DNA from: Clavaria fumosa
Lineage: Eukaryota; Basidiomycota; Agaricomycetes; Agaricales; Clavariaceae
Assembly: GCA_951802425.1 (NCBI GenBank)
Contig: OX637806.1
Coordinates: 372,001 to 436,000, forward strand
Direction of reading: 5' to 3'
Length of the DNA stretch: 64,000 bases
In this document: piece by piece, positions 1-57,079 of the stretch
Numbering within the stretch: position 1 is the first letter of the stretch
Layout of the letters: each line of letters begins with the position of its first letter
Program-made: the position numbers and the translations under genes
Notes under the pieces: model-generated
The model's database searches: none
What the model was told of the DNA's origin: nothing
The model's input: only the letters and a program-made list of their open reading frames with translations

Positions 1-6
1 GCTCAT

Positions 7-900: not shown

Positions 901-1110
901 TTTTCATTTTATCTTCATTGTTTTCAATATCCCTTCTTTCTGGGTCATGCACCTCGGACATCGCAGACGATACATAGTAGCGTTTGTTCAATTTAGACAA
1001 ATTTTCTTAGCCGCTCGGGTCATTTTGAATACCAGCCCCAGAGTACATGCACTTATCAGCTACCTTGATTATTCGAGCGAGCACACGAACTATCTATCTC
1101 CACGTATATA
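901..1110. other. Convergent intergenic spacer
   Basis: About 210 bases between the stop of the serine-rich ORF (+) and the stop of VWA8 (-). It is AT-richer than its flanks and presumably holds the two 3' UTRs. I see no further gene. Confidence 0.6.
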
Positions 1111-32184: not shown

Positions 32185-33193
32185 TGGAGTGATCGCACGG
32201 CTACCTGTTCATGTCTGGAAGTGATGAGTGGTTGGTTGGGGAGGAGTGTGACTGGAAGACATAATAGGGTGTTATCCAGGTGTTGAGTGGTGGGGCGAGG
32301 GGGAGACTTGATATTATGTTAGGGCCTGTCCTGTCTCGTAAGTAATGTCGAAGGTCAACTTGTTGGTGACCGGTCTTGGGAACTCGCTAAGACCAATCAA
32401 CTGTTGAGCACAGTCAAGAATGCTCAGTCCCGGAATATTGAAGAGATGTTAGAAACGTTGTGAAGTCAGTAGACAAGCATAAAAGAGAAAAAGACAAATG
32501 GAGAGGTCGCTGAGGGGGTCATGAGGTCGACCAACGAAGTGTGAGGAAAGAAATAGATGAGGTGGGAGAGATAGGTAACGCTGAGAAGGTCGCGAAGTCA
32601 ACCAACGAAGTGTAAGGAAGGAAAATGATGAGGTGGGAGAAATAGACGATGGGGAGAGGTTGTGTGAAGTTGTGACAATGTTGAGAAGTAGATCGGTTGA
32701 AGGCAATGACTTTGCTGACCGATAAGGGAACCTGTTGGGTTCCAAGGATCAGTACCAAGATGAAACGAGGAAAATACTTAGGTGGCACAAGTTGCACGAG
32801 CGCCGAGAACGAGGTAGAAGAAAAGCAGAGTGGGTCTTGGTGTGATCTGGTCACCAAGTGAGACAAGCACTTATCAATCGTGCTTGGTTCGAAGCTCAGA
32901 AGGCGTCGGGCCTAAAGCTTAAACCAATAATGCATCAATATCAAGTCTGGAGTGCAGTAAGTACAGGAGGGACAAAACTGTTGCAATGTTTGGTCATTTT
33001 GCATTGTCATCTGTATTACATATCATATATTGGAGATAAAATTGGCTAAAAATATTCTTTAAATAAACCTACTTCCTGGCTATATTTCAACATTTATCCC
33101 ATATAAATCCATTCATTAATCACTGAGGAATTAAATATTTTGTGTGGGGGTAGCATTGCAACAGTTTTGTCCCTTCCAGTCTGATGGTACAAA

Positions 33194-33288
33194 GTCACCT
33201 GATTTTGTTGATTTGCTACAAAATAGAGCACAGCCACACATTGCAATCAACAATGTCAGGTGACTGGTTCATTTTGTGGTATATATAC
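33194..33288 (+). promoter_or_regulatory. Tc1 promoter region with inverted repeat and TATA box
   Basis: GTCACCTGATTTTGTTGATT (33194-33213) and AATCAACAATGTCAGGTGAC (33245-33264) form an imperfect inverted repeat. TATATATAC at 33280-33288 lies 46 bases before the chosen ATG. The inverted repeat could bind transposase; that is inference. Confidence 0.5.
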
Positions 33289-33333
33289 ACCCCCTTGGGG
33301 TGCAACCATCCTCCCCCCAGAGCTCAGAGCAGC

Positions 33334-34350
33334 ATGAAGCCCCTCACCACTACTCAGGCTAATCACATCCTTTCTCTGCTTGATTCTGGGCACTCTGCCC
33401 ATCAGATATCCTCTCTGACTGGAGTCCACACCAGCACCATCTCCAGGCTTCGCTCCAAACATCGTTCCTCCCTTTCCAAATCCCTTGGTGGTCGACCCTC
33501 CCTCCTCTCTGATGCCAACATTCGCTATGCCCTCCACCTTATCTCATCCCAGAAGGCTGAGAATGCCACCCAAATCACCAAATCTCTTCAGGATATCACC
33601 AACCAGCCCCTCTCCTCCAAAACTGTACGTCGTGGCTTGCAGAAGGCTGGGATGAAAGCTGTGGTGAAGCAGAAGAAACCCTCACTGTCTCAGAGACACA
33701 GGAAGGAGAGGATGGATTTTGCTGTCAGCCACCAAGATTGGACTGTGGAGGATTGGAAGAAGGTTGTCTGGTCTGATGAGACCAAGATTAATCGTTTTGG
33801 TTCAGATGGGAGGAGATGGGTGTGGAAAAAGGCAGGGGAGGGCCTGAGTGATAGGCTTGTGCAGGGGACTAGGAAGTTTGGGGGGGGATCTCTGATGATG
33901 TGGGGGTGCATGATGTGGGAAGGACCTGGCTATGCAGTCAAGATTGATGGTAGGATGGATGCAGAGCTCTACACCAAAATCTTGGAGGAGGATCTTCAAG
34001 CCAGCCTCACCTATTATGACAAAACTTCCAGAGATGTCATCTTCCAACAGGACAATGACCCCAAACATGTCAGCAAGAAGGCCAAGGCTTGGTTCCAAGA
34101 CAATAGTTTCAAGGTCCTCTCATGGCCAGCACAGTCCCCAGACCTCAATCCTATTGAACATTTATGGAATCACCTGAAGAAGAAGCTTGGGGCATATGAC
34201 AAGCCACCTGGTGGAATACTGGAGCTTTGGGACAGGGTGGAGAAGGAGTGGAATGGGATAGATGCATCAGTGTGCCAGGGACTTATTGAAAGTATGCCTA
34301 GGAGAGTTGAGGCAGTGTTAAAGGCCAAAGGGGGCCATACCAAATACTGA
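33334..34350 (+). CDS. Tc1/mariner DD34E transposase
   Basis: 338 codons without a break, the usual size for Tc1 transposases. The frame is open from 33184, but the ATG at 33334 (MKPLTTTQANHILSLLDSGH) is preferred because the TATA box lies between the two and the family starts with this helix-turn-helix region. N-terminal HTH with HQISSLTGVHTSTISRLRSK; second DNA-binding part with GRPSLLS. Catalytic triad: D in VWSDETKINRFG, D in IFQQDNDPKH and E in SPDLNPIEHLW, with 34 residues between the last two. GRP-like and WGC motifs are present. The enzyme cuts and pastes DNA at the terminal repeats into TA sites. All key residues are intact, so it may be active. Confidence 0.95.
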   Translation: MKPLTTTQANHILSLLDSGHSAHQISSLTGVHTSTISRLRSKHRSSLSKSLGGRPSLLSDANIRYALHLISSQKAENATQITKSLQDITNQPLSSKTVRRGLQKAGMKAVVKQKKPSLSQRHRKERMDFAVSHQDWTVEDWKKVVWSDETKINRFGSDGRRWVWKKAGEGLSDRLVQGTRKFGGGSLMMWGCMMWEGPGYAVKIDGRMDAELYTKILEEDLQASLTYYDKTSRDVIFQQDNDPKHVSKKAKAWFQDNSFKVLSWPAQSPDLNPIEHLWNHLKKKLGAYDKPPGGILELWDRVEKEWNGIDASVCQGLIESMPRRVEAVLKAKGGHTKY

Positions 34351-37698: not shown

Positions 37699-38329
37699 TC
37701 TGATGCACCCCCTTCAGCACACCCACCCCCTATCCAAAAGGCCCAGCCGATTTTGACTGATGCCCTTTTTATGGGCCCAGCCGATCGTCGGCCGAGATAT
37801 TGCTTTATAGGCTTGGCCAATCAACTTGATATACCAAAATCCTGCCAGGCATACAGGGATCCCATGGTAATGATGATACCCTTTCAAAAGGGCTGGCTGA
37901 CACTCATTTTAGGAACCAGTGTAGAGGGTCTGAAGCACCCTATTCAAACATTTCTCTCACTTACATGACAAATTAGATCAAAAGGCTGGGGATAAAGCAT
38001 ATGCACAAGATTAGGAAGCAAAGATCAGATGTGCTATTTGATAGACATGTAAATTACAAGGTCATCTGCATCATTTGAGACTCCTTATCATATGAGACTC
38101 CTCCATGACAACTTAACATAGTTGGGTGAGATGAAAACCAATATGCCTTCCAATAGGTCTTCAAAGGGTAGAAGCAAATGTACCAATCAAATATGCAATG
38201 GAGCCATTATAAACTAGAGTGAAATGTGGTTGTCAACTGAGTCAGAATATTCTTTGGAAAAGGATGGGCCTTAATATCCTTTCTGAAGAGTATTCAAATC
38301 CACTTTGAATATGTGTTCTAAAGGAGAAT

Positions 38330-39012
38330 GTATTGTTATTGTTCAAATATTCTTGCAATGTAGAAGTTGTGCATGTGAGTCTGTTATCACACCTTGTGAT
38401 TATATCATTCTGTGGCTGTGCCTGGGATCCCGGGTGTGACAGTCACACTGTGACCAACTCTGCATATTAGTATTGTTCAGATATCCTTGCATTGTAGAAG
38501 TTGTGCATGTGAGTCTGTTATCTCACCTTGGGATTATATCATTTTGTGGCTGTGCCCGGGATCCCGGGTGTGACAGTCACACTGTGACCAACTCTGCATA
38601 TTAGTATTGTTCAGATATCCTTGCAATGCAGAAGTTGTGCATGTGAGTCTGTTATCACACCTTGGGATTATATCACTCTGTGGCTGTGCCCGGGATCCCA
38701 GGTGTGACAGTCACACTGTGACCAACTCTGCATATTAGTATTGTTCAGATATCCTTGCATTGTAGAAGTTGTGCATGTGAGTCTGTCATCTCACCTTGGG
38801 ATTATATCATTTTGTGGCTGTGCCCGGGATCCCAGGTGTGACAGTCACACTGTGACCAACTCTGCATATTAGTATTGCTCAGATATTCTTGCATTGTAGA
38901 AGTTGTGCATTGTAGAAGTTGTGCATGTGAGTCTGTCATCTCACCTTGGGATTATATCATTTTGTGGCTGTGCCCAGGATCCCAGGTGTGACAGTCACAC
39001 TGTGACCACAAC
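38330..39012 (+). repeat. 134-bp tandem repeats, left arm
   Basis: The motif AGAAGTTGTGCATGTGAGTC recurs at 38362, 38496, 38630, 38764 and about 38898, 134 bases apart, about five units. Each unit carries CCCGGGATCCCGGG-type and GTGTGACAGTCACACTGTGAC palindromes. The last unit has a short internal duplication. Confidence 0.9.
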
Positions 39013-40195
39013 TCTGGATCTGCAACTCATATCCATAACTACCAGGGCAGGGCAAGTACAATGATTGGACAGAGGGGAACAAGGTGTGAAGACATGTTCA
39101 GAGAAGGAAGGACTACTGTATCTGTAACTACAAGGGCACAACAAGAACATATCCAAGGCTGGGGAAGGCATCTCAGAGAGGATGATGAGTGTTGAGAAGG
39201 GGTGGTGTCAGCACTGACAGAGTCATCACACTCAAACATTCTTTCATTTACTTGTGTCTATAGTAGTCTCTTTGTGTTTACCTGCCCTCCTCTCCTTGTA
39301 TTTACCTACCAGTTTCTACATCATATACACCCTGGGGCTCTTGAGCATGAGCCAGGGATCACTTTATGACTTATTGCACATGGACAGCAGAACATAGGAT
39401 GATTTGACACTTGAGATTATTTGAAAGGATGCTGCTGGCCCACTTAGGGTTAGGGTTAGGGCAGATAAACTGCAATAGATTCAGGGTGATCTCTTATACC
39501 ATATTCATTTGTCAAAGCTAATCCACAAGTACAAATTAATTACAACAAATCAAAAGAAAAACATGTCTGGCATTTACATCAGAGGATGGGTGGCCAAATC
39601 CACCTCCGACAAGCCATTCATATGATAATATGTGCTTCATTGCAAAGGGGGCACTGCAATCTAGGCAAGCCCCACTTCACCAAAGCAAGAGTCCCCAGTC
39701 TCAAGTAGATAAGATGATCTGTAAGAAACTAGGGTGGGAGGACGCTAACCACATGGCAGTCAGCAGTCCATCCCAGAGCCCATATGGCAACCCCAAGGTA
39801 TGAGCAGCAGATAGCACAAAAAAACTTACAAAGATGGGGTTGGGGGAGGTTGTCTTGCATAATAGACCACACTCACATCCTTGGCCCATTTGGCCACCCC
39901 AGGTGCAGGTATGAATGAGGGTTGGTTGGGGCCAGCCTGCATATAAGCTGCCACCAAACCAAAAGGCCCATACGGCCACCCTCTTCACATAACATTCTGA
40001 AAAGCAACATCAACAAGCACCATACCAGTAAAAAGTGTGAATAGTAATAAAACCCACGTACCTCTGCAGGTGTCAAGCTCATACAGACACCTGAAGGCAG
40101 ACAAGAGCAGCATTCCCTGTATGGCACTGCAGTTGCCACACAGAGAATGCTGCCCTTGTCTGCCACAAACCATAAGGTGGACATGGCAGCACAGG

Positions 40196-41620
40196 AAGGG
40201 CAGTGGGCAGCGGGGCAGCAGGCGGGGCAGCAGGTGGGCAGGGCGGGGCAGCAGGTGGGCAGGCGAGGCAGCGGGTGGGCAGGCGGGGCAGCGGGCAGGC
40301 GGGGCAGGGCAGCGGGCAGGCAGGGCGGGGCAGTGGGTGGGAAGGCAGGGCAGCGGGTGGGAAGGCGGGGCAGCCGGTGGGCAGGCGGGGCTGCGGGTGG
40401 GCAGGCAGGGCTGCGGGCAGGGCGGGGTTGCGGGCGAGCAGGCGGGGCTGCAGGAGGGCAGGCGGGGCTGCAGGAGGGCAGGGCGGGGCAGGGCAGGGCG
40501 GCGGGTGGGCAGGGCTGCGGGGCTGCGAGGCAGCGGGCAGGCAGGGCGGGGCAGCGGGCAGCAGGCAGGCAGGGCAGCGGGTGGGCAGCGGGTGGGCAGC
40601 GGGTGGGCAGGCAGGGCTGCGGGCAGGGCGGGGTTGCAGGCGAGCAGGCGGGGCAGCGGCCAGGCAGGGCGGGGCAGCGGGCAGCAGGCAGGCAGGGCAG
40701 CAGGTGGGCAGCGGGTGGGCAGTGCGGGCCAGCGGGCCAGCAGGCAGGCGGGGCAGTGGGCAGGCGGGGCAACGGGTGTAGAGGCGGGGCAGCGGGCGGG
40801 CAGGCAGGGCTGCAGGAGGGCAGGGCGGGGCAGCGGGCGGGCAGGCGGGGCAGCAGGAGGGCAGGGCGGGGCAGGGCGGGGCGGCGGGTGGGCAGGGCTG
40901 CGGGGCTGCGAGGCAGCGGGCAGGCAGGCAAGGCAGTGGGCGGGCAGGGCGGGGCTGCGAGGCAGCAGGCAAGCAGGGCGGGGCAGCGGGCAGCAGGCAG
41001 GCAGGGCTGCGGGTGGGCAGCGGCTGGGCTGCGGGTGGGCAGGCAGGGCTGCGGGCAGGGCGGGGTTGCGGGCGAGCAGGCGGGGCAGGGCGGGGCGGCG
41101 GGTGGGCAGGGCTGCGGGGCTGCGAGGCTGCAGGTGGGCAGGCGGGGCTGCGGGCGAGCAGGCGGGGCAGCGGGCGGGCAGGCGGGGCTGCAGGAGGGCA
41201 GGCGGGACGGCAGGAGGGCAGGCGGGGCTGCAGGAGGGCAGGGCGGGGCAGGGCGGGGCGGCGGGTGGGCAGGGCTGTGGGGCTGCGAGGCAGCGGGTGG
41301 GCAGGCAGGGCTGCGGGCAGGGCGGGGTTGCAGGCGAGCAGGCAGGGCGGGGCAGCGGGCAGCAGGCAGGCAGGGCAGCGGGTGGGCAGCGGGTGGGCAG
41401 CGGGTGGGCAGCGGGTGGGCAGCGGGTGGGCAGTGCGGGCCAGCGGGCCAGCGGGCAGGCGGGGCAACAGGTGTAGAGGCGGGGCAGCGGGCGGGCAGGC
41501 GGGGCTGCAGGAGGGCAGGGCGGGGCAGCGGGCGGGTAGGCGGGGCTGCAGGAGGGCAGGGCGGGGCGGCGGGTGGGCAGGGCTGCGGGGCTGCGGGGCT
41601 GCAAGGCAGCGGATGGGCAG
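40196..41620 (+). repeat. G-rich minisatellite, left arm (about 1.4 kb)
   Basis: Mosaic of GGGCAGGCGGGGCAGCGGGC, GGGCTGCAGGAGGGCA and GGGTGGGCAGC units. G-runs are regularly spaced and could form quadruplexes. Long Gly/Ala/Arg and Pro/Ala/Cys frames result from composition and are not called as genes. Confidence 0.9.
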
Positions 41621-42478
41621 GCGCAGCAGAGGACGTTCCACCATGTTTGTTTGGTGCTCACTGTTTAAAGTGTTTCAACATTTGGCTCTGTTTGTTCATG
41701 TTGATATGTCATGTGACTCTGCCCAATGACACAATCACAAGCCTTTTCTTGGCCCTGTACTCAGGCCAGGCTAGAATGGGAGGATTTTATGTACTAGGTT
41801 CTATATGATGTGATAAGCTAGAGTCTAGATGTGGGTGCCAAGAGAGGATGATACAAACAAAGGCCCAGAGCTGCTTTTGGTAAGCTGCTATGACTGTGGG
41901 AAGAAAATTGCATGGCTTGCGAAATATGACTTTTTATACACCAAAAAATCGGCAAAAATCAGGAGATTCTGAATCTGGATACCCCACATTTGTACCTGCC
42001 TTGGTTCAGTGTCAATTCGCAAAATACACAGAAAATATTCATTTTCCACAATTCTGCAGTACTCTGCAGTACTCTGGCTTGAAAATGGTTAGTGGAGGAT
42101 ACACACATTACCTGTAGACATATGGGGAGGATGTAGATTAGTTTAACAATCCACCCACCATCTCTGTCACCTCCCTGGAATCCATTACTAGGAATTAGGG
42201 TTATTGGCCTGGGAGCATGGCTATTTGTTATATTGCAAATTCCAGCCATCAGACTACACCCTATGACATCTAATACAATCATACAAAAGCCCATAATATT
42301 TGGTGCAGAACTACAGATTCCCCATGTCTATTTTCCCAAAATTCTCAAAATCTCTCCCCAGATAGCCCCCTTTGTCAAATCACATATTCCTGTTAGCAAA
42401 TAGTTTACAATGTGTACATGAAGACATGTACAAAGTTTGGTGAAGTTGGGCCAAGTTCTCAGGAAGATAGCCCAGAAT

Positions 42479-42561
42479 GAGACTTTTGGGAGACTGTCAA
42501 GGTCTTCCTTATCCTCGCCTTCATCTTTGACTTCACTTTAGACTGTCCTTCCAGAAGACAT
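42479..42561. other. Palindrome centre (83-bp spacer)
   Basis: The only asymmetric part of the element, GAGACTTTTGGGAGACTGTC ... AGACTGTCCTTCCAGAAGAC. GACTGTC occurs twice. Confidence 0.9.
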
Positions 42562-43419
42562 ATTCTGGGCTATCTTCCTGAGAACTTGGCCCAACTTCAC
42601 CAAACTTTGTACATGTCTTCATGTACACATTGTGAACTATTTGCTAACAGGAATATGTGATTTGACAAAGGGGGCTATCTGGGGAGAGATTTTGAGAATT
42701 TTGGGAAAATAGACATGTGGAATCTGTAGTTCTGCACCAAATATTATGGGCTTTTGTATGATTGTATTAGATGTCATAGGGTGTAGTCTGATGGCTGGAA
42801 TTTGCAATATAACAAATAGCCATGCTCCCAGGCCAATAACCCTAATTCCTAGTAATGGATTCCAGGGAGGTGACAGAGATGGTGGGTGGGTTGTTAAACT
42901 AATCTACATCCTCCCCATATGTCTACAGGTAATGTGTGTATCCTCCACTAACCATTTTCAAGCCAGAGTACTGCAGAGTACTGCAGAATTGTGGAAAATG
43001 AATATTTTCTGTGTATTTTGCGAATTGACACTGAACCAAGGCAGGTACAAATGTGGGGTATCCAGATTCAGAATCTCCTGATTTTTGCCGATTTTTTGGT
43101 GTATAAAAAGTCATATTTCGCAAGCCATGCAATTTTCTTCCCACAGTCATAGCAGCTTACCAAAAGCAGCTCTGGGCCTTTGTTTGTATCATCCTCTCTT
43201 GGCACCCACATCTAGACTCTAGCTTATCACATCATATAGAACCTAGTACATAAAATCCTCCCATTCTAGCCTGGCCTGAGTACAGGGCCAAGAAAAGGCT
43301 TGTGATTGTGTCATTGGGCAGAGTCACATGACATATCAACATGAACAAACAGAGCCAAATGTTGAAACACTTTAAACAGTGAGCACCAAACAAACATGGT
43401 GGAACGTCCTCTGCTGCGC

Positions 43420-44440
43420 CTGCCCATCCGCTGCCTTGCAGCCCCGCAGCCCCGCAGCCCTGCCCACCCGCCGCCCCACCCTGCCCTCCTGCAGCCCCGC
43501 CTACCCACCCGCTGCCCCGCCCTGCCCTCCTGCAGCCCCGCCTGCCCGCCCGCTGCCCCGCCTCTACACCTGTTGCCCCGCCTGCCCGCTGCCCCGCCTG
43601 CCTGCTGGCCCGCTGGCCCGCACTGCCCACCCGCTGCCCACCCGCTGCCCACCCGCTGCCCTGCCTGCCTGCTGCCCGCTGCCCCGCCCTGCCCGCAGCC
43701 CTGCCTGCCCACCCGCTGCCTCGCAGCCCCGCAGCCCTGCCCACCCGCCGCCCCGCCCTGCCCACCCGCCGCCCCGCCCTGCCCTCCTGCAGCCCCGCCT
43801 GCCCTCTTGCCATCCCGCCTGCCCTCCTGCAGCCCCGCCTGCCCGCCCGCTGCCCCGCCTGCTCGCCCGCAGCCCCGCCTGCCCACCCGCAGCCTCGCAG
43901 CCCCGCAGCCCTGCCCACCCGCCGCCCCGCCCTGCCCCGCCTGCTCGCCCGCAACCCCGCCCTGCCCGCAGCCCTGCCTGCCCACCCGCAGCCCAGCCGC
44001 TGCCCACCCGCAGCCCTGCCTGCCTGCTGCCCGCTGCCCCGCCCTGCTTGCCTGCTGCCTCGCAGCCCCGCCCTGCCCGCCCACTGCCTTGCCTGCCTGC
44101 CCGCTGCCTCGCAGCCCCGCAGCCCTGCCCACCCGCCGCCCCGCCCTGCCCCGCCCTGCCCTCCTGCTGCCCCGCCTGCCCGCCCGCTGCCCCGCCCTGC
44201 CCTCCTGCAGCCCCGCCTGCCCGCCCGCTGCCCCGCCTCTACACCCGTTGCCCCGCCTGCCCGCTGCCCCGCCTGCCTGCTGGCCCGCTGGCCCGCACTG
44301 CCCACCCGCTGCCCACCTGCTGCCCTGCCTGCCTGCTGCCCGCTGCCCCGCCTGCCCACCCGCTGCCTCGCCTGCCCACCTGCTGCCCCGCCCTGCCCAC
44401 CTGCTGCCCCGCCTGCTGCCCCGCTGCCCACTGCCCTTCC
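43420..44440 (-). repeat. G-rich minisatellite, right arm (about 1.0 kb)
   Basis: Same units as 40196-41620 in opposite orientation, with several units missing; edges match exactly. Confidence 0.9.
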
Positions 44441-45624
44441 TGTGCTGCCATGTCCACCTTATGGTTTGTGGCAGACAAGGGCAGCATTCTCTGTGTGGCA
44501 ACTGCAGTGCCATACAGGGAATGCTGCTCTTGTCTGCCTTCAGGTGTCTGTATGAGCTTGACACCTGCAGAGGTACGTGGGTTTTATTACTATTCACACT
44601 TTTTACTGGTATGGTGCTTGTTGATGTTGCTTTTCAGAATGTTATGTGAAGAGGGTGGCCGTATGGGCCTTTTGGTTTGGTGGCAGCTTATATGCAGGCT
44701 GGCCCCAACCAACCCTCATTCATACCTGCACCTGGGGTGGCCAAATGGGCCAAGGATGTGAGTGTGGTCTATTATGCAAGACAACCTCCCCCAACCCCAT
44801 CTTTGTAAGTTTTTTTGTGCTATCTGCTGCTCATACCTTGGGGTTGCCATATGGGCTCTGGGATGGACTGCTGACTGCCATGTGGTTAGCGTCCTCCCAC
44901 CCTAGTTTCTTACAGATCATCTTATCTACTTGAGACTGGGGACTCTTGCTTTGGTGAAGTGGGGCTTGCCTAGATTGCAGTGCCCCCTTTGCAATGAAGC
45001 ACATATTATCATATGAATGGCTTGTCGGAGGTGGATTTGGCCACCCATCCTCTGATGTAAATGCCAGACATGTTTTTCTTTTGATTTGTTGTAATTAATT
45101 TGTACTTGTGGATTAGCTTTGACAAATGAATATGGTATAAGAGATCACCCTGAATCTATTGCAGTTTATCTGCCCTAACCCTAACCCTAAGTGGGCCAGC
45201 AGCATCCTTTCAAATAATCTCAAGTGTCAAATCATCCTATGTTCTGCTGTCCATGTGCAATAAGTCATAAAGTGATCCCTGGCTCATGCTCAAGAGCCCC
45301 AGGGTGTATATGATGTAGAAACTGGTAGGTAAATACAAGGAGAGGAGGGCAGGTAAACACAAAGAGACTACTATAGACACAAGTAAATGAAAGAATGTTT
45401 GAGTGTGATGACTCTGTCAGTGCTGACACCACCCCTTCTCAACACTCATCATCCTCTCTGAGATGCCTTCCCCAGCCTTGGATATGTTCTTGTTGTGCCC
45501 TTGTAGTTACAGATACAGTAGTCCTTCCTTCTCTGAACATGTCTTCACACCTTGTTCCCCTCTGTCCAATCATTGTACTTGCCCTGCCCTGGTAGTTATG
45601 GATATGAGTTGCAGATCCAGAGTT

Positions 45625-46290
45625 GTGGTCACAGTGTGACTGTCACACCTGGGATCCTGGGCACAGCCACAAAATGATATAATCCCAAGGTGAGATGACA
45701 GACTCACATGCACAACTTCTACAATGCACAACTTCTACAATGCAAGAATATCTGAGCAATACTAATATGCAGAGTTGGTCACAGTGTGACTGTCACACCT
45801 GGGATCCCGGGCACAGCCACAAAATGATATAATCCCAAGGTGAGATGACAGACTCACATGCACAACTTCTACAATGCAAGGATATCTGAACAATACTAAT
45901 ATGCAGAGTTGGTCACAGTGTGACTGTCACACCTGGGATCCCGGGCACAGCCACAGAGTGATATAATCCCAAGGTGTGATAACAGACTCACATGCACAAC
46001 TTCTGCATTGCAAGGATATCTGAACAATACTAATATGCAGAGTTGGTCACAGTGTGACTGTCACACCCGGGATCCCGGGCACAGCCACAAAATGATATAA
46101 TCCCAAGGTGAGATAACAGACTCACATGCACAACTTCTACAATGCAAGGATATCTGAACAATACTAATATGCAGAGTTGGTCACAGTGTGACTGTCACAC
46201 CCGGGATCCCAGGCACAGCCACAGAATGATATAATCACAAGGTGTGATAACAGACTCACATGCACAACTTCTACATTGCAAGAATATTTG
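45625..46290 (-). repeat. 134-bp tandem repeats, right arm
   Basis: Mirror image of 38330-39012, including the short internal duplication in the innermost unit. Confidence 0.9.
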
Positions 46291-46935
46291 AACAATAACA
46301 ATACATTCTCCTTTAGAACACATATTCAAAGTGGATTTGAATACTCTTCAGAAAGGATATTAAGGCCCATCCTTTTCCAAAGAATATTCTGACTCAGTTG
46401 ACAACCACATTTCACTCTAGTTTATAATGGCTCCATTGCATATTTGATTGGTACATTTGCTTCTACCCTTTGAAGACCTATTGGAAGGCATATTGGTTTT
46501 CATCTCACCCAACTATGTTAAGTTGTCATGGAGGAGTCTCATATGATAAGGAGTCTCAAATGATGCAGATGACCTTGTAATTTACATGTCTATCAAATAG
46601 CACATCTGATCTTTGCTTCCTAATCTTGTGCATATGCTTTATCCCCAGCCTTTTGATCTAATTTGTCATGTAAGTGAGAGAAATGTTTGAATAGGGTGCT
46701 TCAGACCCTCTACACTGGTTCCTAAAATGAGTGTCAGCCAGCCCTTTTGAAAGGGTATCATCATTACCATGGGATCCCTGTATGCCTGGCAGGATTTTGG
46801 TATATCAAGTTGATCGGCCAAGCCTATAAAGCAATATCTCGGCCGACGATCGGCTGGGCCCATAAAAAGGGCATCAGTCAAAATCGGCTGGGCCTTTTGG
46901 ATAGGGGGTGGGTGTGCTGAAGGGGGTGTCTGATG

Positions 46936-47192: not shown

Positions 47193-48110
47193 TGTAAGGA
47201 CCATATGCGATCTAAACACGGAAACATGACAGATACCGACTATCCGGATGTTTTGCGATCCAAAGAAATTACGTGCGATACGAACCGATAACGATCCGAC
47301 ACCGTCCGATAACGACCGATAGCATCCGATACATGTCCGATGTCGGACACTTCGGTCTTCAATCCCCCGTGACGATCACAGCCCACCGCTCTCACACACC
47401 GCCCACGCCTCTCTATTTCACCTCTCCAGCACGGTCAGCGCTCGACATACACACTATTCCATTCCCATTCCTTTATTTCATATACCATGCTGTAAATTTC
47501 ATATTATGATCCCTTTCAACCATTCAATCGTTTAAACGTTTCAAACCCTTTGCAGTACCTTGTCCATTGTTCTTAGTACCCCTTTGCTGTACCAGCCCCA
47601 CTTTCCTTCAGTTTATGAGCGGTCCGGACATTTGCTAGTTATCGGACATTTCATTCCTCCGAGCTACTCATTTCCCTTGTGATATAACTCCTTCATGTAA
47701 CCCTTCACGCGACATGGCGCTGTTCCATGTGTTTTCCGGACATTTCCGTACATTCCAATTTGCTGTACTTACAGAACTGTACTTAAGTACACTCCGGACC
47801 TCTCTGAAATACAGCTTTCTGAACCCCTTCTCTCTGTTAGAAACCTCACCTAAGCTCACCCGTCGTCGCAACCTTCGATCCGCTGGCCTCCGTCGTTGCC
47901 GGCCCTTCGTCTTATCGCACCATCCTTATCGGATTTTATCGGACACATAGCAGAATATCCCGGACACCGTATATTTCTATTTCTCACATATTTTGAATTC
48001 ATACTCCACATCCTCAAGGGTGTTTGGTGAATCTCTAACGCCTTACAGGAACCCCTGAAGGACTTGACTGTAATCAAGCAGTTGCAGCAAGAACCGTAAT
48101 ACCCACTACA
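47193..48110 (+). repeat. gypsy-B 5' LTR
   Basis: TGTAAGGACC...CCCACTACA. Near its end, GTGAATCTCTAACGCCTTACAG resembles an intron branch point and acceptor. Confidence 0.95.
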
Positions 48111-48499: not shown

Positions 48500-50497
48500 A
48501 TGGCCAACCAACCGAGATATCCGCTCCGTGGCGCCCACGGGGCCCCTGCCTTTGACGGAGTACCGACACACCTCAACCGGTACTTCGAGGACATCGACAT
48601 CGTGCTCACCGGCGTCAACCCGGACGTTCCAGAACCCGATTTAATTCGGTACGCCAAGCACTATCTCGACACCGATACGTGTCTCCTCTGGGAGACTCTT
48701 TCACCTGACCCGGACCCGGTATGGACGTGGGATACCTTCAAAGCGGCCGTCCGACGACTTTATCCAGGATCTGATGGAGGTCGCTTATTTTCCGTCGCCG
48801 ACCTGGACCGTTTCATATCGGACTCGGCCCAAAAGGGAGTTTACACGCGCGCAGAACACGGAGAATACTATCGGGACTTTCTCCGGATCACCTCGCACTT
48901 GATCACATCACAGCGTATGTCCACAAATGACAGGAACCGACTTTACATCCTCGGATTTGGGGATCATACAAGGCGTCGGATCGAAAGCCGACTCGCTATC
49001 ATACTACCAAACCACCATCCGGAGGATCCTTACCCCATGAATGAAGTACATGGTGCAGCTGAATTTCTTCTCTCCTCGACGTCCCCCCACTCTGCGACAA
49101 CCGATCAACTTTCCGGACCCGTCCGTCTCGCATCTTCAGCCCCCGGGAGAGAAACGAAACCGGTAGTCAAGAAGGAAGAATTTGATATGTCCGCAGCCTG
49201 GGCAACATTCGCTTCCACAATGGCTCGCCTGGAATCGATTTTGACAGCCCAATCTCTCGAACCGGCAAGACACTCCGCTCCCCGGACAACGAACTCTCCC
49301 GCAGGCCGGACGTGTAATTTCTGTTCGGAAATAGGTCATTTTGTTAGTGCCTGTCCGAAGGCCCTCGAATACATTAAGTCCGGCAAATGTATACGGAACA
49401 CAGAAGGCAGGATTTGTCTCCCCTCCGGACGATATTTGCCAGGCACTATCTCAGGGAACAACCTATCCGAGCGCTTCGACAAGTACTACGCTACATACCA
49501 ATCCCAGAACACGCAACCGGCGACAACCGCGGTATTTGAAGCACAGCCGATCGGACAATCCGCTCACCCCCCGGACATGGAAGACGATTCGGACGAGGAA
49601 GATGACGAGAATACCGTGTTGGAAAACATGGTCCGCACCTTTGCAAACGATGTCGCGAAGAAAGTAGACAAGGGCAAAAGGAAAGCACCCACACCCAGGA
49701 ATACCGATCCTCAGCCATCTAGGTTACCGCCCCCACCCGCCGTTGTTATTACGCCGCCTCAGGTCACTCGTCCATCAAAGCCGGAGAAAATCGAACGACC
49801 CGACGTCCAGTACCATTACCAAGCTCCGATCGAAAATCCGGTAACCGTTCAACAAGTATTCGATCGCGCACTCGACATGCCAGTCCGCGTCACACCTCGC
49901 GAACTACTCGCCATTTCCGGAGACATCCGCAAAAAGATGAAGGATGTGGTTACCGCTCGTCGCGTTCCGGTCACCGCGTCCGTCGTACAGGATACGCTCT
50001 ATACAAACATTACGGTCCCGGACACCTCCGATCTTGTTGTCGCCGTCGACGCTGCTCCGCTCTGCATCGTAGAAGGGATATTGGACAACCGGATCGCCGC
50101 GGAGTGCCTGCTCGACCAAGGCAGCTCAATCGTGGCAATGCAAAGAGACGTTTGGGAGAAACTCGGCAACCCACTACACTCCGAGAACGTTATTCACATG
50201 GAATCCTCTCATGGCACCATCGCTCCGACCCTCGGACTCATCAAGAATTTCCCCCTACAGATCGGTCCGTGCACATTCCATGTTCAAATGCAAGTAGCAG
50301 ACACGTTGCCCTGCGAGGTTCTTGTCGGACGACCGTTTTTCATGTTAACCGGATCCCAAACGATTGACCATCCCCACGGGGCCCAGGACCTTATTCTCAA
50401 CGATCCAAACACCGGAGAAAGAATCATAGTGCCAACGAAGGAGCGAATCCCGATCCGCAAATCCTTGAAGAACAAGAAACCGCATCCGGATTTTTGA
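48500..50497 (+). CDS. gag: gypsy-B Gag-protease
   Basis: 665 codons, start at the first in-frame ATG (MANQPRYPLRGAHGAPAF). The capsid-like region is roughly residues 20-190; a zinc knuckle C-x2-C-x4-H-x4-C (CNFCSEIGHFVSACP) lies at about residue 272. An acidic linker (DDSDEEDDENT) and proline-rich stretch follow, then a retropepsin-like domain with AECLLDQGSSIVAM at about residue 533, where DQGS replaces the usual D(S/T)G. It ends TTT TGA at 50492-50497, just where pol is open in the -1 frame. Builds the particle and cleaves the polyprotein. Confidence 0.93.
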   Translation: MANQPRYPLRGAHGAPAFDGVPTHLNRYFEDIDIVLTGVNPDVPEPDLIRYAKHYLDTDTCLLWETLSPDPDPVWTWDTFKAAVRRLYPGSDGGRLFSVADLDRFISDSAQKGVYTRAEHGEYYRDFLRITSHLITSQRMSTNDRNRLYILGFGDHTRRRIESRLAIILPNHHPEDPYPMNEVHGAAEFLLSSTSPHSATTDQLSGPVRLASSAPGRETKPVVKKEEFDMSAAWATFASTMARLESILTAQSLEPARHSAPRTTNSPAGRTCNFCSEIGHFVSACPKALEYIKSGKCIRNTEGRICLPSGRYLPGTISGNNLSERFDKYYATYQSQNTQPATTAVFEAQPIGQSAHPPDMEDDSDEEDDENTVLENMVRTFANDVAKKVDKGKRKAPTPRNTDPQPSRLPPPPAVVITPPQVTRPSKPEKIERPDVQYHYQAPIENPVTVQQVFDRALDMPVRVTPRELLAISGDIRKKMKDVVTARRVPVTASVVQDTLYTNITVPDTSDLVVAVDAAPLCIVEGILDNRIAAECLLDQGSSIVAMQRDVWEKLGNPLHSENVIHMESSHGTIAPTLGLIKNFPLQIGPCTFHVQMQVADTLPCEVLVGRPFFMLTGSQTIDHPHGAQDLILNDPNTGERIIVPTKERIPIRKSLKNKKPHPDF

Positions 50498-53400
50498 GAG
50501 CTGGAGCCTCGAATGTCCGCAAACCAACGGACTTACCTCCGATCAATGCGGACACGGAAGCTATACCCAGATACGAGACTCCAGCCATTTTTCCTACTTC
50601 CGTTCACGTTCCCTTATCGTTTTCCCTTATAAACCCAGTCTCTCTCGACCCCTTCCCCTGTATCAGTATCTCGGACGTTTCTCTCGATTCCGCTGATTCC
50701 CCAGTCGCTATCGGACGTGAACCGTCGCGTCCAAATGTTGCAACCCCCTTGTACAACAAAACCCCCGAAATAAATTCCCTGTCTACGGACGCCGTTCTTC
50801 CAGTTTACTTGGGAAAGAAATATAAGAAAGTCGCGAATCGCGTCAATCCGATCAAAGCGACAGTACCCAAAGAATTCCGGATTGTCCGACGCCGACACCC
50901 GGACCCCCTAGCCGATATGCCAACTCTTCCGACCCATCCCCCCGATTTCACCCCCGGTCTTCGATACACTCAAAACCGGAAAGACACGCACAACGCCAAC
51001 CCCACCGGATTCTTATGGCCGGAGGAAGAAAAACTCGTTCACCATCTTATTAAAGCCCAGGAAGACGCCTTCGCTTGGAAAGAGACCGAAAAAGGACGAT
51101 TCGACGCAAAATACTTCGATCCGATTATTATCCCGACAGTCGAACATATCCCTTGGATCTTCAAAAATATACCGATTCCCCCCGGTATTTACGACGAAGT
51201 TCTCAAAGTAATCCGGGAAAAGATCGCAGCCGGCGTTTATGAAGAATCCAACTCTTCTTATCGGTCCCAGTGGTTTTGCGTGTTAAAGAAAGACGGAAAG
51301 TCTCTCCGACTCGTGCACAACCTCCAGCCGCTTAACAAAATCACTATCGGCGATTCCGCGGTCCCCCCGATAATGGAGGTTTTTGCGGAATCATTCGCCG
51401 GACGCGGATGTTACGGATCACTCGACCTTTTCGTCTCCTTCGATCAGCGGTCTCTGGACGAACGAAGCCGAGACCTCACCACGTTTCAAACCCCTCTCGG
51501 AGCAAAACGGCTCACCTGCGTCCCCATGGGATACACCAACGCGACGCAGATTATGCATGGAGACGTCACGCATGTTCTACAAGATGAAATTCCGCACGTA
51601 ACCATCCCATTCGTAGACGATGTAGCGATCAAGGGCCCGGAAACCCGATACGAGCTTCCGGACGGCACCTACGAGACGATCCCTGAGAATCCGCAAATAC
51701 GACGATTTGTTTGGGAGCATTTAAATAACGTCAACCGGGTGCTCCAACGAATCAAGAAAGTCGGAGGAACCTTTAACGGCAAGAAAACGACAATTTGCGT
51801 TCCCGAAGCAGTCGTTACCGGACATACGTGCACATACGAAGGACGAGTTCCGGATGCCTCCAACGTTCAGCGTATCCGGGACTGGCCTCCTTGCAAAACC
51901 CTGACCGATGTCCGATCATTTTTAGGGGTTTGCGGACTACTCCGGATATTCATTAAAAACTACGCCGTACTTGCCCGACCTCTTGTCAGTCTAACTCGCA
52001 AGGACGTGCCATTCAGATTCGAAAAAGAAGAACAAAACTCGATGGACCGACTCAAACACGCGATTCTGAACTCATCCGCCATCCGACCAATCGACTACCG
52101 CTCCGGACAACCCGTAATCCTCGCCGTCGACTCATCAAATATCGCCGTTGGTTTCGCACTCTTCCAAATTGGAGAAGATGGAATACGATATCCCTCCCGC
52201 TTTGGCTCCATTACCTGGAACGAACGCGAGGCCCGATACTCACAAGCAAAAATCGAATTATACGGACTCTTCCGCGCACTTCGGTCGTACCGGATTTACC
52301 TTATAGGCCTTCCGAAATTTACTGTCGAAATGGACGCGAAGTTCATTAAGGGTATGCTAAACAATCCGGACATTCAACCCAACGCTGCCATGAATCGATG
52401 GATTGCCGGTATACTACTCTTCGATTTCGATCTTGTTCATATTCCCGCAGATAAGCACACCGGAGCCGACGGACTATCACGCCGACGTGCCGCAGATGGT
52501 GAAGAAGATACCGAGTCTGAAGATCACGAAGAATGGATCGATCGGAGCTACGTATTCGCCATGGAACACATGAATCGAGCACCGGACGCTTCCTACACAT
52601 CCGAGACACGACTCGCCGGCATCACCCATACTCGCTTCAAAGTTTACACAGGATCGACGCTACTCAATTCGACGGTACCACCCGAGGAATCACCGACCCC
52701 GAACGAATCTTCCGCCGTCCTTATACCCCGATCCGATGCAGCAAACAAAAGAGAAGAACAGATTCGCAAAATTGAATCTTTCCTTCGAAACCCGATCCGT
52801 CCCTCCGGCATTGACGCAAACCAGTTCCAACGACTGGTCCGCTCCGCATCCGAGTTCTTCATCCTAGATGACAAATTATGGCGACGCCGACCTAACGGAT
52901 ACCACCAAGTAGTACCTCCGGACCACAAACGTCTCGCAATTATCACAGAGGCACACGATTCACTCGGCCACAAAGGCGTTTACGTTATCCGGACACGTAT
53001 TCTAAATCGGTTCTGGTGGCCGGTGCTGGATCAAGACGTAAAATGGTTTGTCAAAACTTGTCACCAATGCCAAACTCGGCAAATCCGGAAGATCTTCATT
53101 CCACCGACGGTCGCTACACCGGCCGGTCTTTTCCGTCGAGCGCACATTGATACTATGTTCCTACCAAGAGCCCGCGGTTTCCGACTTCTCGTCCACGCCC
53201 GATGCTCGTTATCCGCATATCCGGAAGCAAGACCGCTACGAAACGAGACCGCCCGACTTCTCGGAACCTTCATATTCGAAGATATACTATGCCGATGGGG
53301 AGCAGTAGAAGAGATTATCACGGATAACGGAGCCCCATTTATCAAAGCCCTCGATTTCCTTAAGAAACGGTACGGAATCCATCACATCCGTATATCCGGA

Positions 53401-54231
53401 TACAACTCCCGCGCTAACGGCGTCATCGAACGTGCCCATCGATCGGTCCGTGAGTCGTTAATCAAAGCAGCAGATGGAGACGAATCGAAATGGCCGGACG
53501 TTTTACCCTCAGTCATTTGGGCAGAACGAACCACGATCCAACGGTCCACCGGCCACTCCCCATTTTACATCGCACATGGCGTCGAACCGCTTTTCCCCTT
53601 CGACATATCCGAAGCAACATATTTAATTCCGACCGCCGACGCCCCGATGACCACTCCGGAACTGATAGCCCTTCGTGCCCGCCAACTGCAAAAACGAGAA
53701 GAAGATCTAGCAACAATCGCCGATAAAGTGCTCGCTGCCCGCAAACAATCCGTCAAGCAGTTCATCGACGCACACCGGAAGTCTATTATCGACTACGACT
53801 TCCAACCCGGATCGTTGGTATTGATCCGCAATTCGGCCGTTGAAATGGAATTAAATCGAAAAACAAAACCGCGATTCTTCGGACCGATGATCGTCGTTCG
53901 CCGAACACAATATGGCGCCTATATTCTCTCGGAACTCGACGGCGCCGTTTCCAAAATCCACTACGCAGCTTTCCGCATCATTCCCTACTATCCGAGGTCG
54001 CAAACATCGATTCCGGTCACTTCTATCATCGACCAAACGACGGAGATAAACGAGGACATCTCTCCCTATCAAATACACGAGGCGTCACCCAACTCTATCG
54101 ACAGAGAAGATGAGCAAAACCAAGCGGCTGACCTATCCGATGAATCCGATAATGAAACCACCGACGACGACACTGCAGAAACTCGTCCGCAACGCTCCGG
54201 AGCAACCCGGAACCTTCGGCCTCGCCATTAA
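50494..54231 (+). CDS. pol: gypsy-B Pol: reverse transcriptase, RNase H, integrase
   Basis: 1,245 codons in the -1 frame relative to gag, with no ATG at the junction, so a Gag-Pol fusion by frameshift is likely. RT: RLVHNLQPLNKITIGDSAVP, GSLDLFVSFDQRSLDERSRD, PMGYTNATQIMHGDV and catalytic FVDDVAIKG. RNase H: ILAVDSSNIAVGFALF and HTGADGLSRR. Integrase: zinc-binding HDSLGHKG ... CHQCQTRQ, then catalytic D (AHIDTMF), D (IITDNGAPF) and E (ANGVIERAHRS). GPY/F-type end FFGPMIVVRRTQYGAYILS; no chromodomain; acidic tail. The RT motifs fit a basidiomycete Ty3 lineage distinct from the chromoviruses. No disabling changes seen. Confidence 0.95.
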   Translation: MRAGASNVRKPTDLPPINADTEAIPRYETPAIFPTSVHVPLSFSLINPVSLDPFPCISISDVSLDSADSPVAIGREPSRPNVATPLYNKTPEINSLSTDAVLPVYLGKKYKKVANRVNPIKATVPKEFRIVRRRHPDPLADMPTLPTHPPDFTPGLRYTQNRKDTHNANPTGFLWPEEEKLVHHLIKAQEDAFAWKETEKGRFDAKYFDPIIIPTVEHIPWIFKNIPIPPGIYDEVLKVIREKIAAGVYEESNSSYRSQWFCVLKKDGKSLRLVHNLQPLNKITIGDSAVPPIMEVFAESFAGRGCYGSLDLFVSFDQRSLDERSRDLTTFQTPLGAKRLTCVPMGYTNATQIMHGDVTHVLQDEIPHVTIPFVDDVAIKGPETRYELPDGTYETIPENPQIRRFVWEHLNNVNRVLQRIKKVGGTFNGKKTTICVPEAVVTGHTCTYEGRVPDASNVQRIRDWPPCKTLTDVRSFLGVCGLLRIFIKNYAVLARPLVSLTRKDVPFRFEKEEQNSMDRLKHAILNSSAIRPIDYRSGQPVILAVDSSNIAVGFALFQIGEDGIRYPSRFGSITWNEREARYSQAKIELYGLFRALRSYRIYLIGLPKFTVEMDAKFIKGMLNNPDIQPNAAMNRWIAGILLFDFDLVHIPADKHTGADGLSRRRAADGEEDTESEDHEEWIDRSYVFAMEHMNRAPDASYTSETRLAGITHTRFKVYTGSTLLNSTVPPEESPTPNESSAVLIPRSDAANKREEQIRKIESFLRNPIRPSGIDANQFQRLVRSASEFFILDDKLWRRRPNGYHQVVPPDHKRLAIITEAHDSLGHKGVYVIRTRILNRFWWPVLDQDVKWFVKTCHQCQTRQIRKIFIPPTVATPAGLFRRAHIDTMFLPRARGFRLLVHARCSLSAYPEARPLRNETARLLGTFIFEDILCRWGAVEEIITDNGAPFIKALDFLKKRYGIHHIRISGYNSRANGVIERAHRSVRESLIKAADGDESKWPDVLPSVIWAERTTIQRSTGHSPFYIAHGVEPLFPFDISEATYLIPTADAPMTTPELIALRARQLQKREEDLATIADKVLAARKQSVKQFIDAHRKSIIDYDFQPGSLVLIRNSAVEMELNRKTKPRFFGPMIVVRRTQYGAYILSELDGAVSKIHYAAFRIIPYYPRSQTSIPVTSIIDQTTEINEDISPYQIHEASPNSIDREDEQNQAADLSDESDNETTDDDTAETRPQRSGATRNLRPRH

Positions 54232-56161: not shown

Positions 56162-57079
56162 TGTAAGGACCATATGCGATCTAAACACGGAAACATGACA
56201 GATACCGACTATCCGGATGTTTTGCGATCCAAAGAAATTACGTGCGATACGAACCGATAACGATCCGACACCGTCCGATAACGACCGATAGCATCCGATA
56301 CATGTCCGATGTCGGACACTTCGGTCTTCAATCCCCCGTGACGATCACAGCCCACCGCTCTCACACACCGCCCACGCCTCTCTATTTCACCTCTCCAGCA
56401 CGGTCAGCGCTCGACATACACACTATTCCATTCCCATTCCTTTATTTCATATACCATGCTGTAAATTTCATATTATGATCCCTTTCAACCATTCAATCGT
56501 TTAAACGTTTCAAACCCTTTGCAGTACCTTGTCCATTGTTCTTAGTACCCCTTTGCTGTACCAGCCCCACTTTCCTTCAGTTTATGAGCGGTCCGGACAT
56601 TTGCTAGTTATCGGACATTTCATTCCTCCGAGCTACTCATTTCCCTTGTGATATAACTCCTTCATGTAACCCTTCACGCGACATGGCGCTGTTCCATGTG
56701 TTTTCCGGACATTTCCGTACATTCCAATTTGCTGTACTTACAGAACTGTACTTAAGTACACTCCGGACCTCTCTGAAATACAGCTTTCTGAACCCCTTCT
56801 CTCTGTTAGAAACCTCACCTAAGCTCACCCGTCGTCGCAACCTTCGATCCGCTGGCCTCCGTCGTTGCCGGCCCTTCGTCTTATCGCACCATCCTTATCG
56901 GATTTTATCGGACACATAGCAGAATATCCCGGACACCGTATATTTCTATTTCTCACATATTTTGAATTCATACTCCACATCCTCAAGGGTGTTTGGTGAA
57001 TCTCTAACGCCTTACAGGAACCCCTGAAGGACTTGACTGTAATCAAGCAGTTGCAGCAAGAACCGTAATACCCACTACA
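56162..57079 (+). repeat. gypsy-B 3' LTR
   Basis: 918 bases, same as the 5' LTR in every stretch compared; followed by the GCGT duplication. Confidence 0.95.

What the first reader, a model, noticed from the sequence alone, without database searches (positions are those of the whole stretch)
37706..46928. A 9.2-kb near-perfect palindrome inserted as a unit, with 7-bp target duplication
Two arms of about 4.4-4.8 kb in opposite orientation around an 83-bp centre, bounded by CACCCCCTTCAGC and flanked by TCTGATG on both sides. Removing it restores the host retrotransposon frame, so it arrived in one event. It encodes no recognisable transposase. Arms of this length and identity are rare and should be hard to replicate; how it moves and how the arms are kept alike are open questions.
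Basis: partly seen in the sequence, partly recalled or inferred. Interest (0 to 1): 0.88.

Follow-up and report, generated by a model that had tools for sequence, protein, structure and literature searches.

The report
Palindromic jumping DNA in a fungus
This is a 9-kilobase mirror-image transposon with no recognisable genes of its own, apparently moved by larger transposons that share its ends, and copies across the genome suggest that its two halves keep correcting each other, probably through a DNA hairpin.

Summary
Confirmed. 37706-46928 is a 9,223-bp near-palindrome flanked by the 7-bp duplication TCTGATG. It is one of nine such palindromes (eight of 7.1-10.4 kb, one interrupted) among 27 convergent pairs of the end CACCCCCTTCAGCACACCC drawn from the listed matches in this 48.8-Mb genome. 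Of 16 pairs of 22-44 kb, 13 contain a KDZ transposase match; the one copy scanned also has CxC2 and TET/JBP domains. With 7-bp duplications and CA..TG ends this is Kyakuja-type. The palindrome is therefore read as a non-autonomous Kyakuja-like element moved in trans.

How the arms stay alike: variants shared by both arms of an element outnumber single-arm variants 85 to 24. Own-partner divergence averages 0.25%, against 1.05% between elements. A second palindromic family (CAGTA) shares the central 1.3 kb and behaves alike (93 to 16). Of 12 sites asymmetric in several elements, 10 lie at the hairpin tip. One copy carries 43 bp of its left flank, inverted, between its right end and its target duplication. 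I infer repeated hairpin-templated copying.

Very long inverted repeats of this make are known in Drosophila Galileo, so this is a new variant of a known kind. Raw reads were not available.

The parts
37699..37705 (.). target site duplication, left copy (TCTGATG)
46929..46935 (.). target site duplication, right copy (TCTGATG)
37706..37724 (+). terminal sequence CACCCCCTTCAGCACACCC shared with the 22-44 kb elements
46910..46928 (-). same terminal sequence, inverted
37706..42478 (+). left arm (4,773 bp)
42562..46928 (-). right arm (4,367 bp)
42479..42561. hairpin tip/loop (83 bp counted from the first tip mismatch; 55 bp between the arms by the repeat finder, 42493-42547)
37706..38474 (+). terminal 769 bp, 97.7-97.8% identical to the two ends of the 25.9-kb KDZ element C8:731235-757123 (mirror copy 46160-46928)
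38331..39008 (+). 134-bp tandem repeat array, approximate bounds (mirror copy about 45626-46303)
39032..40175 (+). contains three blocks 75-84% identical to internal stretches of the two 26-kb KDZ elements compared
40236..41641 (+). GC-rich minisatellite in the left arm, approximate bounds; length differs between the arms; long ORFs without Pfam match
43418..44427 (-). GC-rich minisatellite in the right arm, approximate bounds
41866..43174 (.). palindromic core shared (about 88-96% at the 12 CAGTA-type loci compared) with a second palindromic family with CAGTAGTACTG ends
37819..37819 (+). only mismatch (A/G, partner 46815) in the outer 2,593 bp of the arms

Best explanation
The palindrome is a non-autonomous Kyakuja-type (KDZ superfamily) DNA transposon. 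It moves in trans: a transposase made by the 22-44 kb elements recognises the shared CACCCCC..GGGGGTG ends and inserts it with 7-bp duplications. It arose once, when the central 1.3 kb of another palindromic family came to lie beside one arm of a CACCC element; copying across the hairpin then turned that single arm into two mirror arms with two working ends. The arms have since been kept alike by repeated hairpin-templated copying: a broken or resected arm folds back at the core and is re-synthesised on its partner, or stem mismatches in an extruded cruciform are corrected. The loop and the pairs next to it mostly escape. Copying sometimes runs past the end into flanking DNA. Shown here: the family, ends, duplications, transposase-bearing partners, one common arm/core junction, joint evolution of the two arms, and one 43-bp inverted flank copy placed between end and duplication. 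Inferred: the single origin and its order of events, trans-mobilisation by the KDZ protein, the fold-back route, and one-ended cleavage as the trigger of the overshoot.
For: Ends: 102 matches with up to 1 mismatch, reversed control 0; 27 convergent pairs of 0.65-44 kb drawn from the 100 listed. Perfect 7-bp duplication in 17 of 23 pairs whose two flanks were read; 6 of 7 in two, inverted flank in two, none in two. KDZ matches: of the 150 listed (185 found), at least one lies inside 13 of 16 pairs over 11 kb and 0 of 11 shorter ones. The one 26-kb copy scanned has CxC2 (8e-27), KDZ (1e-30) and Tet_JBP (2e-18). Arms of nine palindromes: 85 sites where both arms of an element share a variant, 24 single-arm, 5 asymmetric in two or more elements (3 at the tip), 5 mixed. 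Own-partner divergence 0.25% against 1.05%; own partner nearest for 16 of 18 arms; 0 of 2000 shuffles as close. CAGTA family, 12 loci: 93 symmetric, 16 single-arm, 17 mixed, 7 shared-asymmetric, these 7 in the last 22 of 640 columns. Core ends: 217 matches, 200 with CAGTA-type and 17 with CACCC-type flank, mirror-imaged about the core at the loci read. C1:3227889 carries 43 bp of its left flank inverted between its right end and GTAGTCT; C1:4638393 has a 64-bp inverted flank.
Against: No raw reads, so consensus polishing that levels the arms is not excluded; mismatches outside the tip survive in eight of nine palindromes, and C5:397880 keeps only the three at the tip. Two of the five sites asymmetric in several CACCC elements do not lie at the tip (positions 114 and 2309). 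The interrupted palindrome C2:123702 is closer to another element than to its own partner (0.75% against 0.58% and 0.69%). Over the terminal 550 bp alone the partner is nearest for only 12 of 18 palindrome arms; 11 elements of 24-44 kb also show arm matching (0.63% within, 1.60% between, 0 of 5000 shuffles as close), so a close hairpin is not required. In the CAGTA set some arms of different loci are identical (minimum between 0.00%), and own partner is nearest for 20 of 24 with ties settled by name. Fold-back synthesis and ordinary conversion leave the same pattern. C1:4638393 has no displaced duplication. Placement within KDZ by a transposase tree was not tested.
Confidence: 0.7

Rival explanations
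1. Ordinary inter-copy or sister-chromatid gene conversion levels the arms, and the palindrome geometry is incidental; no fold-back synthesis is involved.
For: The ends of 11 elements of 24-44 kb are also more alike within than between elements (0.63% against 1.60%, 0 of 5000 shuffles as close). Multi-kb arm conversion is reported for a sex-chromosome palindrome (title and start of abstract of PMC3723533).
Against: The within/between ratio is lower in the nine palindromes (0.22/1.30) than in the long elements (0.63/1.60). Sites asymmetric in several elements lie at the tip in 3 of 5 cases in one family and 7 of 7 in the other. Inverted flank copies lie beyond 2 of 23 elements.
Confidence: 0.3
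2. Assembly or polishing artefact: reads from one arm placed on the other level single-base differences in the consensus.
For: No reads can be checked here; the arms are long and nearly identical; C5:397880 shows mismatches at the tip only.
Against: In the window copy indels of up to 386 bp survive, and eight of nine palindromes keep mismatches outside the tip. The 1.3-kb CAGTA-type cores, which reads should span easily, show the same pattern with up to 3.3% surviving divergence. Different flanks with matching 7-bp duplications speak against a false palindrome as such.
Confidence: 0.08
3. Each palindrome was made separately from a different single-arm ancestor, so arms match because they are newborn, without continuing exchange.
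For: A single-arm copy exists (L021). Element-specific symmetric variants would also follow.
Against: All nine carry the same arm/core junction, eight on both sides and C9:3273191 on one, and the left/right differences at 4774 and 4775 are the same in 8 of 8 scored, pointing to one ancestral palindrome. Repeated re-making on a pre-existing core is the same as the fold-back model.
Confidence: 0.12
4. The element is an unrelated cargo palindrome that merely captured KDZ-like ends by chance insertion.
For: The core belongs to another family.
Against: The terminal 769 bp and three further blocks are related to the 26-kb elements, and palindromes of this kind carry 7-bp duplications at eight sites.
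Confidence: 0.03

Closest known systems
Kyakuja (KDZ superfamily) TET+ DNA transposons of Agaricomycotina (Kojima 2025, PMC12730594; abstract, sections 3.1.1 and 3.2 and passages read)
   Same: 7-bp duplications, 5'-CA..TG-3' termini, KDZ transposase, TET/JBP gene in the long copy scanned
   Different: Kojima's two Laccaria families have no terminal inverted repeats. Here the two long copies compared have about 3.7-kb inverted ends and the short ones are near-complete palindromes.
Galileo (P superfamily), D. willistoni copy 112 (PMC4168063; passages read) and D. mojavensis Galileo (PMC3573991; Discussion read in full)
   Same: A 9,021-bp copy made only of two inverted repeats of 4,246 and 4,680 bp with ~140-bp tandem repeats, flanked by identical duplications; foreign transposon pieces recruited into both repeats; for D. 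mojavensis a conversion model of repeat growth is proposed and 98-100% identity between the two repeats of a copy is stated
   Different: Different transposase superfamily; one such very long copy described in D. willistoni; in the passages read no site-by-site test of arm exchange, no palindromic core shared by two families and no inverted flank copy beyond an end
KDZ1 of Cryptococcus neoformans (PMC12810828; passages read)
   Same: KDZ transposase; insertions recovered in a reporter gene
   Different: About 11 kb, 241-bp inverted ends, 8-bp duplications
Sex-chromosome palindromes (PMC3723533, PMC8981503; starts of abstracts in the search listing)
   Same: Arm-to-arm gene conversion keeps arms over 99% alike
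   Different: Chromosomal palindromes, not described there as mobile elements
Hairpin-mediated fold-back inversions in yeast (PMC7467729; abstract and outline read)
   Same: A single-stranded hairpin mediates an inverted duplication
   Different: Gross chromosomal rearrangements, not bounded mobile units

Membership tests
Kyakuja / KDZ superfamily | KDZ transposase in the autonomous partners | tested here: met
   PF18758 1e-30 and PF18803 8e-27 in C1:471029; KDZ matches inside 13 of 16 pairs over 11 kb. The window copy itself: no match in the three ORFs scanned.
Kyakuja / KDZ superfamily | 7-bp target duplication (8 bp reported for Zisupton and a Dileera, PMC12730594) | tested here: met
   17 of 23 pairs perfect, 2 more with 6 of 7
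Kyakuja / KDZ superfamily | 5'-CA..TG-3' termini | tested here: met
   CACCCCC..GGGGGTG
Kyakuja / KDZ superfamily | TET/JBP gene carried by long members | tested here: met
   PF12851 2e-18 in C1:471029; an ORF of the same length and same listed start is in C8:731235; no other long copy was scanned
Kyakuja / KDZ superfamily | transposase groups with Kyakuja rather than Zisupton or Dileera in a tree | not tested
   no reference proteins at hand; the protein search was not sent
Zisupton / Dileera | 8-bp target duplications | tested here: not met
   longest exact duplication is 7 bp in the 17 perfect pairs
Galileo / Foldback | long, internally repetitive inverted ends | tested here: met
   134-bp repeats and minisatellite within the arms
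Galileo / Foldback | P-superfamily transposase in the autonomous partner | tested here: not met
   the partner carries a KDZ transposase; no P-type family among the Pfam matches of the 10 ORFs of one partner that were scanned
MITE | short, usually under 600 bp (as stated in PMC3573991) | tested here: not met
   9,223 bp; a 650-bp member with the same ends and a 7-bp duplication does exist at C2:4266713

The most novel reading that the evidence does not exclude
A palindromic core acts as a self-renewing seed for transposons. When it comes to lie beside one end of any KDZ element, fold-back copying triggered by one-ended transposase cutting mirrors everything out to that end, and sometimes beyond. 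One end thus becomes two, and both a new mobile unit and its continuing repair are produced. The 43-bp inverted flank between end and duplication at C1:3227889, the nested outer ends of the CACTCCC elements and the two families sharing one core would be stages of this process.
Probability: 0.35. Interest if true: 0.78.

Novelty: new variant of a known kind. Interest (0 to 1): 0.6.

Why it matters
Long palindromes are expected to be fragile (general knowledge), yet this genome holds at least eight of 7-10 kb and a second palindromic family of roughly 4 kb. They offer replicated natural tests of how palindrome arms exchange sequence, outside sex chromosomes and inside mobile DNA. If the fold-back reading holds, it explains how transposons acquire very long inverted ends and how non-autonomous elements are born from one end of a parent.

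Tried and rejected
Chance inverted repeat: rejected, because copies with matching duplications occur at many sites. Core as an independent third transposon: its ends read CA..TG, but by count its 217 end matches are made up by the two flank contexts (200 + 17), and at the loci read no direct duplication flanks it, so it is read as the centre of the CAGTA family. The listings are cut at 100 rows and the patterns allow different mismatches, so the sum was not checked match by match. Variable palindromic flanks around cores as inverted host DNA: rejected after reading the flanks of 11 loci, which begin with similar family sequence at all but one locus (L029 differs after the first bases), the palindrome ending where one side is truncated or the element ends. 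CACTCCC-ended elements (4 rows) were dropped from the duplication count because they lie inside longer ends: three were extended; the outer end CACACCCTTCAGCGTACCC with duplication GCCGTCA was printed for C6 only, 889 bp further out; the fourth was not extended. C1:3555842 (two ends in the same direction, no pair) was also dropped. Four of the 27 pairs (C4:3704787, C5:3519689, C10:3056211, C11:2185650) were never fetched; single, unpaired ends were not followed. Polarity of conversion along the arms: single-arm sites 9, 3 and 12 against symmetric 40, 16 and 29 in the three segments; I see no clear gradient and made no test. Species name: rRNA search failed twice. Kojima reports TET-bearing Kyakuja in Agaricomycotina, so the host is probably such a fungus (inferred). 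Literature: nine searches listed no title or abstract start that reports palindromic Kyakuja elements; subscription papers are mostly not held. Changed on re-checking: the KDZ count was first made with 25 typed places and repeated with all 150 listed, same result; the tip claim was narrowed to 10 of 12 sites; confidence lowered from 0.72 to 0.70 for it.
Full report
OBSERVATION. The window holds a 9,223-bp inverted-repeat unit at 37706-46928, flanked on both sides by TCTGATG. Its outer 2,593 bp match with one mismatch; an inner 1,058 bp match at 99% around 55 bases; between them lies a GC-rich minisatellite in which the arms differ by indels of 386, 25, 11 and 5 bp. Long ORFs inside (up to 558 codons) look low-complexity, and the three scanned have no Pfam family. 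The frame argument is weak: kept apart, the flanks give one continuing minus-strand phase open 440 bp on the right but only 67 bp on the left.

FAMILY AND MOVEMENT. The window lies in contig C13 of a 48.8-Mb, 17-contig genome. The 19-bp end occurs 49 times forward and 53 times reverse with at most one mismatch; the reversed control gives none. From the 100 listed matches I drew 27 convergent pairs, 0.65 to 44 kb long. Of 23 pairs whose flanks I read, 17 have a perfect 7-bp duplication, two have 6 of 7, two have inverted flanks and two have none. The genome search found 185 KDZ transposase matches and listed 150; of these 150, at least one falls inside 13 of the 16 pairs longer than 11 kb (one of the three without is the interrupted palindrome C2:123702) and inside none of the 11 shorter ones. 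Ten ORFs of one 26-kb copy were scanned: they include CxC2, KDZ and Tet_JBP domains. The terminal 769 bp of the palindrome are 97.7-97.8% identical to the ends of the 25.9-kb element at C8:731235, and arm positions 1327-2470 contain three blocks 75-84% identical to internal stretches of the two 26-kb elements compared. Kojima (PMC12730594, section 3.2 read) reports 7-bp duplications and CA..TG termini for TET-bearing Kyakuja of Laccaria; Zisupton and a Dileera make 8 bp. The palindrome is therefore best read as a non-autonomous Kyakuja-type element. That the KDZ protein moves it is inferred from shared ends and duplications.

OTHER FORMS. Nine palindromes carry the same arm/core junction, eight on both sides and C9:3273191 on one (sequences): the window copy, C1:3227889, C1:4235028, C2:123702, C4:4314730, C5:397880, C9:3273191, C10:64666 and C10:1906547. 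C2:123702 is 22 kb between its ends and its mirror arm is found only in part near its core, so I read it as interrupted. C12:2036368 (3.2 kb) is a single-arm form: arm positions 1-3252 followed by a 294-bp inverted end, without a 7-bp duplication.

SHARED CORE. Bases 41866-43174 recur, about 88-96% identical at the 12 loci compared, at the centre of a second palindromic family with ends CAGTAGTACTG. Pairs of these ends around such cores are 3.9-4.4 kb apart in L030, L031, L032 and L047. Flanks show 7-bp duplications GGGATTT in L030 and CCGGGCT in L031 and none in L032. This end occurs 38 times forward and 33 reverse. The core-end sequence occurs 217 times; 200 matches carry the CAGTA-type flank and 17 the CACCC-type flank. 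By count the core thus sits in two contexts, mirror-symmetrical at the loci read. A single recombination would alter one side only; a mirrored junction needs copying across the palindrome (inference).

ARMS EVOLVE TOGETHER. I aligned three segments of each arm (up to 2.77 kb; 1.9 kb for C9:3273191 and 1.6 kb for C2:123702, where a segment is missing) from the nine palindromes, oriented by their asymmetric loop. Without exchange, mutations should sit on one arm, and left arms of different copies should resemble left arms. Instead 85 sites carry a variant shared by both arms of one or a few elements, 24 differ in one element only, five are mixed and five are asymmetric in two or more elements. 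Of those five, three lie at the tip (6, 8 and 8 of 8 elements); position 114 is asymmetric in 3 of 9 with mixed polarity and 2309 in 2 of 8. Within-element divergence averages 0.25% (0.11-0.75%), between-element 1.05%; the own partner is nearest for 16 of 18 arms, and 0 of 2000 random re-pairings are as close. The two exceptions are the arms of the interrupted copy. Mismatches outside the tip survive in eight of nine. Twelve CAGTA-family cores show the same: 93 symmetric, 16 single-arm, 17 mixed, 7 shared-asymmetric, these seven within the last 22 of 640 columns; within 0-3.3%, between 5.9% on average with a minimum of 0.00%; own partner nearest for 20 of 24, ties settled by name. As a control, the terminal 550 bp of 11 elements of 24-44 kb give 0.63% within and 1.60% between, against 0.22% and 1.30% for the palindromes; both sets beat all of 5000 shuffles; in this short stretch the own partner is strictly nearest for only 12 of 18 palindrome arms and 6 of 22 long-element arms, 16 of 22 with ties. 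Exchange is therefore not confined to palindromes but looks stronger there.

OVERSHOOT. At C1:3227889 the right end is followed by 43 bp that are the exact inverse of the left flank, and then by GTAGTCT, the 7 bp that end the left flank; beyond that the host retroelement resumes, roughly collinear (71%) with a related copy. So 43 bp of left-flank copy lie between the element's right end and its duplication. The simplest reading is cutting at the right end, re-synthesis on the left arm through a hairpin, overrun into the left flank, and re-joining. C1:4638393, a 26-kb element, has a 64-bp inverted flank with one mismatch but no duplication. The CACTCCC ends of four further elements have inverted flanks of 57 bp or more; three were extended, and in one (C6) an outer end CACACCCTTCAGCGTACCC with duplication GCCGTCA lies 889 bp further out. 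This may be the same process on a larger scale.

MECHANISM. I favour hairpin-templated copying, by fold-back synthesis after breakage or by repair of stem mismatches. The loop-adjacent asymmetry fits both; the overshoot needs synthesis. Ordinary conversion between arms is the main rival and cannot be excluded. Polishing artefact is unlikely but untested without reads.

NOVELTY. Galileo copy 112 of D. willistoni (PMC4168063, passages) is 9,021 bp with 4.2- and 4.7-kb inverted repeats, ~140-bp tandem repeats and foreign pieces in both repeats, and a conversion model was proposed for Galileo repeats (PMC3573991, Discussion). The architecture is therefore known in the P superfamily. What I did not find in print is its occurrence in Kyakuja (Kojima saw no inverted repeats in the Laccaria families), its repetition in nine copies, the arm test in two families, the shared core and the overshoot; this rests on nine searches of an open-access library.

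Noticed in passing
window 47193-47930 and 56162-56899: Two direct stretches of at least 738 bp, identical to each other, flank ORFs with protease, reverse transcriptase, RNase H and integrase zinc-binding matches (48500-54231): probably a young LTR retroelement beside the palindrome.
   Followed up: partly
window 33184-34347 (+): 388-aa ORF with DDE_3 and HTH_Tnp_Tc3_2 domains: a Tc1/mariner-like transposase gene close to the palindrome.
   Followed up: no
L010:4656-5111 (-) in the 26-kb KDZ element: ORF containing ARNKQTAQRSTGG, which resembles the histone H3 N-terminus (resemblance recalled; no Pfam match); an ORF with the same listed start is in C8:731235.
   Followed up: no
G000 genome-wide: 185 KDZ transposase matches (a lower bound) in 48.8 Mb, so this superfamily is abundant here.
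   Followed up: partly
L040, L041, L042 with L071-L076: Elements with mirror-symmetrical inner CACTCCC ends. In C6 the mirror symmetry runs out to a CACACCC end with a 7-bp duplication; in the other two the self-alignment stops 337 bp short of the corresponding place.
   Followed up: partly
G000:C7:2479816-2505164: A 25-kb pair of CAGTA-family ends, a candidate transposase-bearing partner for that palindromic family; not fetched, and no listed KDZ match lies in it.
   Followed up: no
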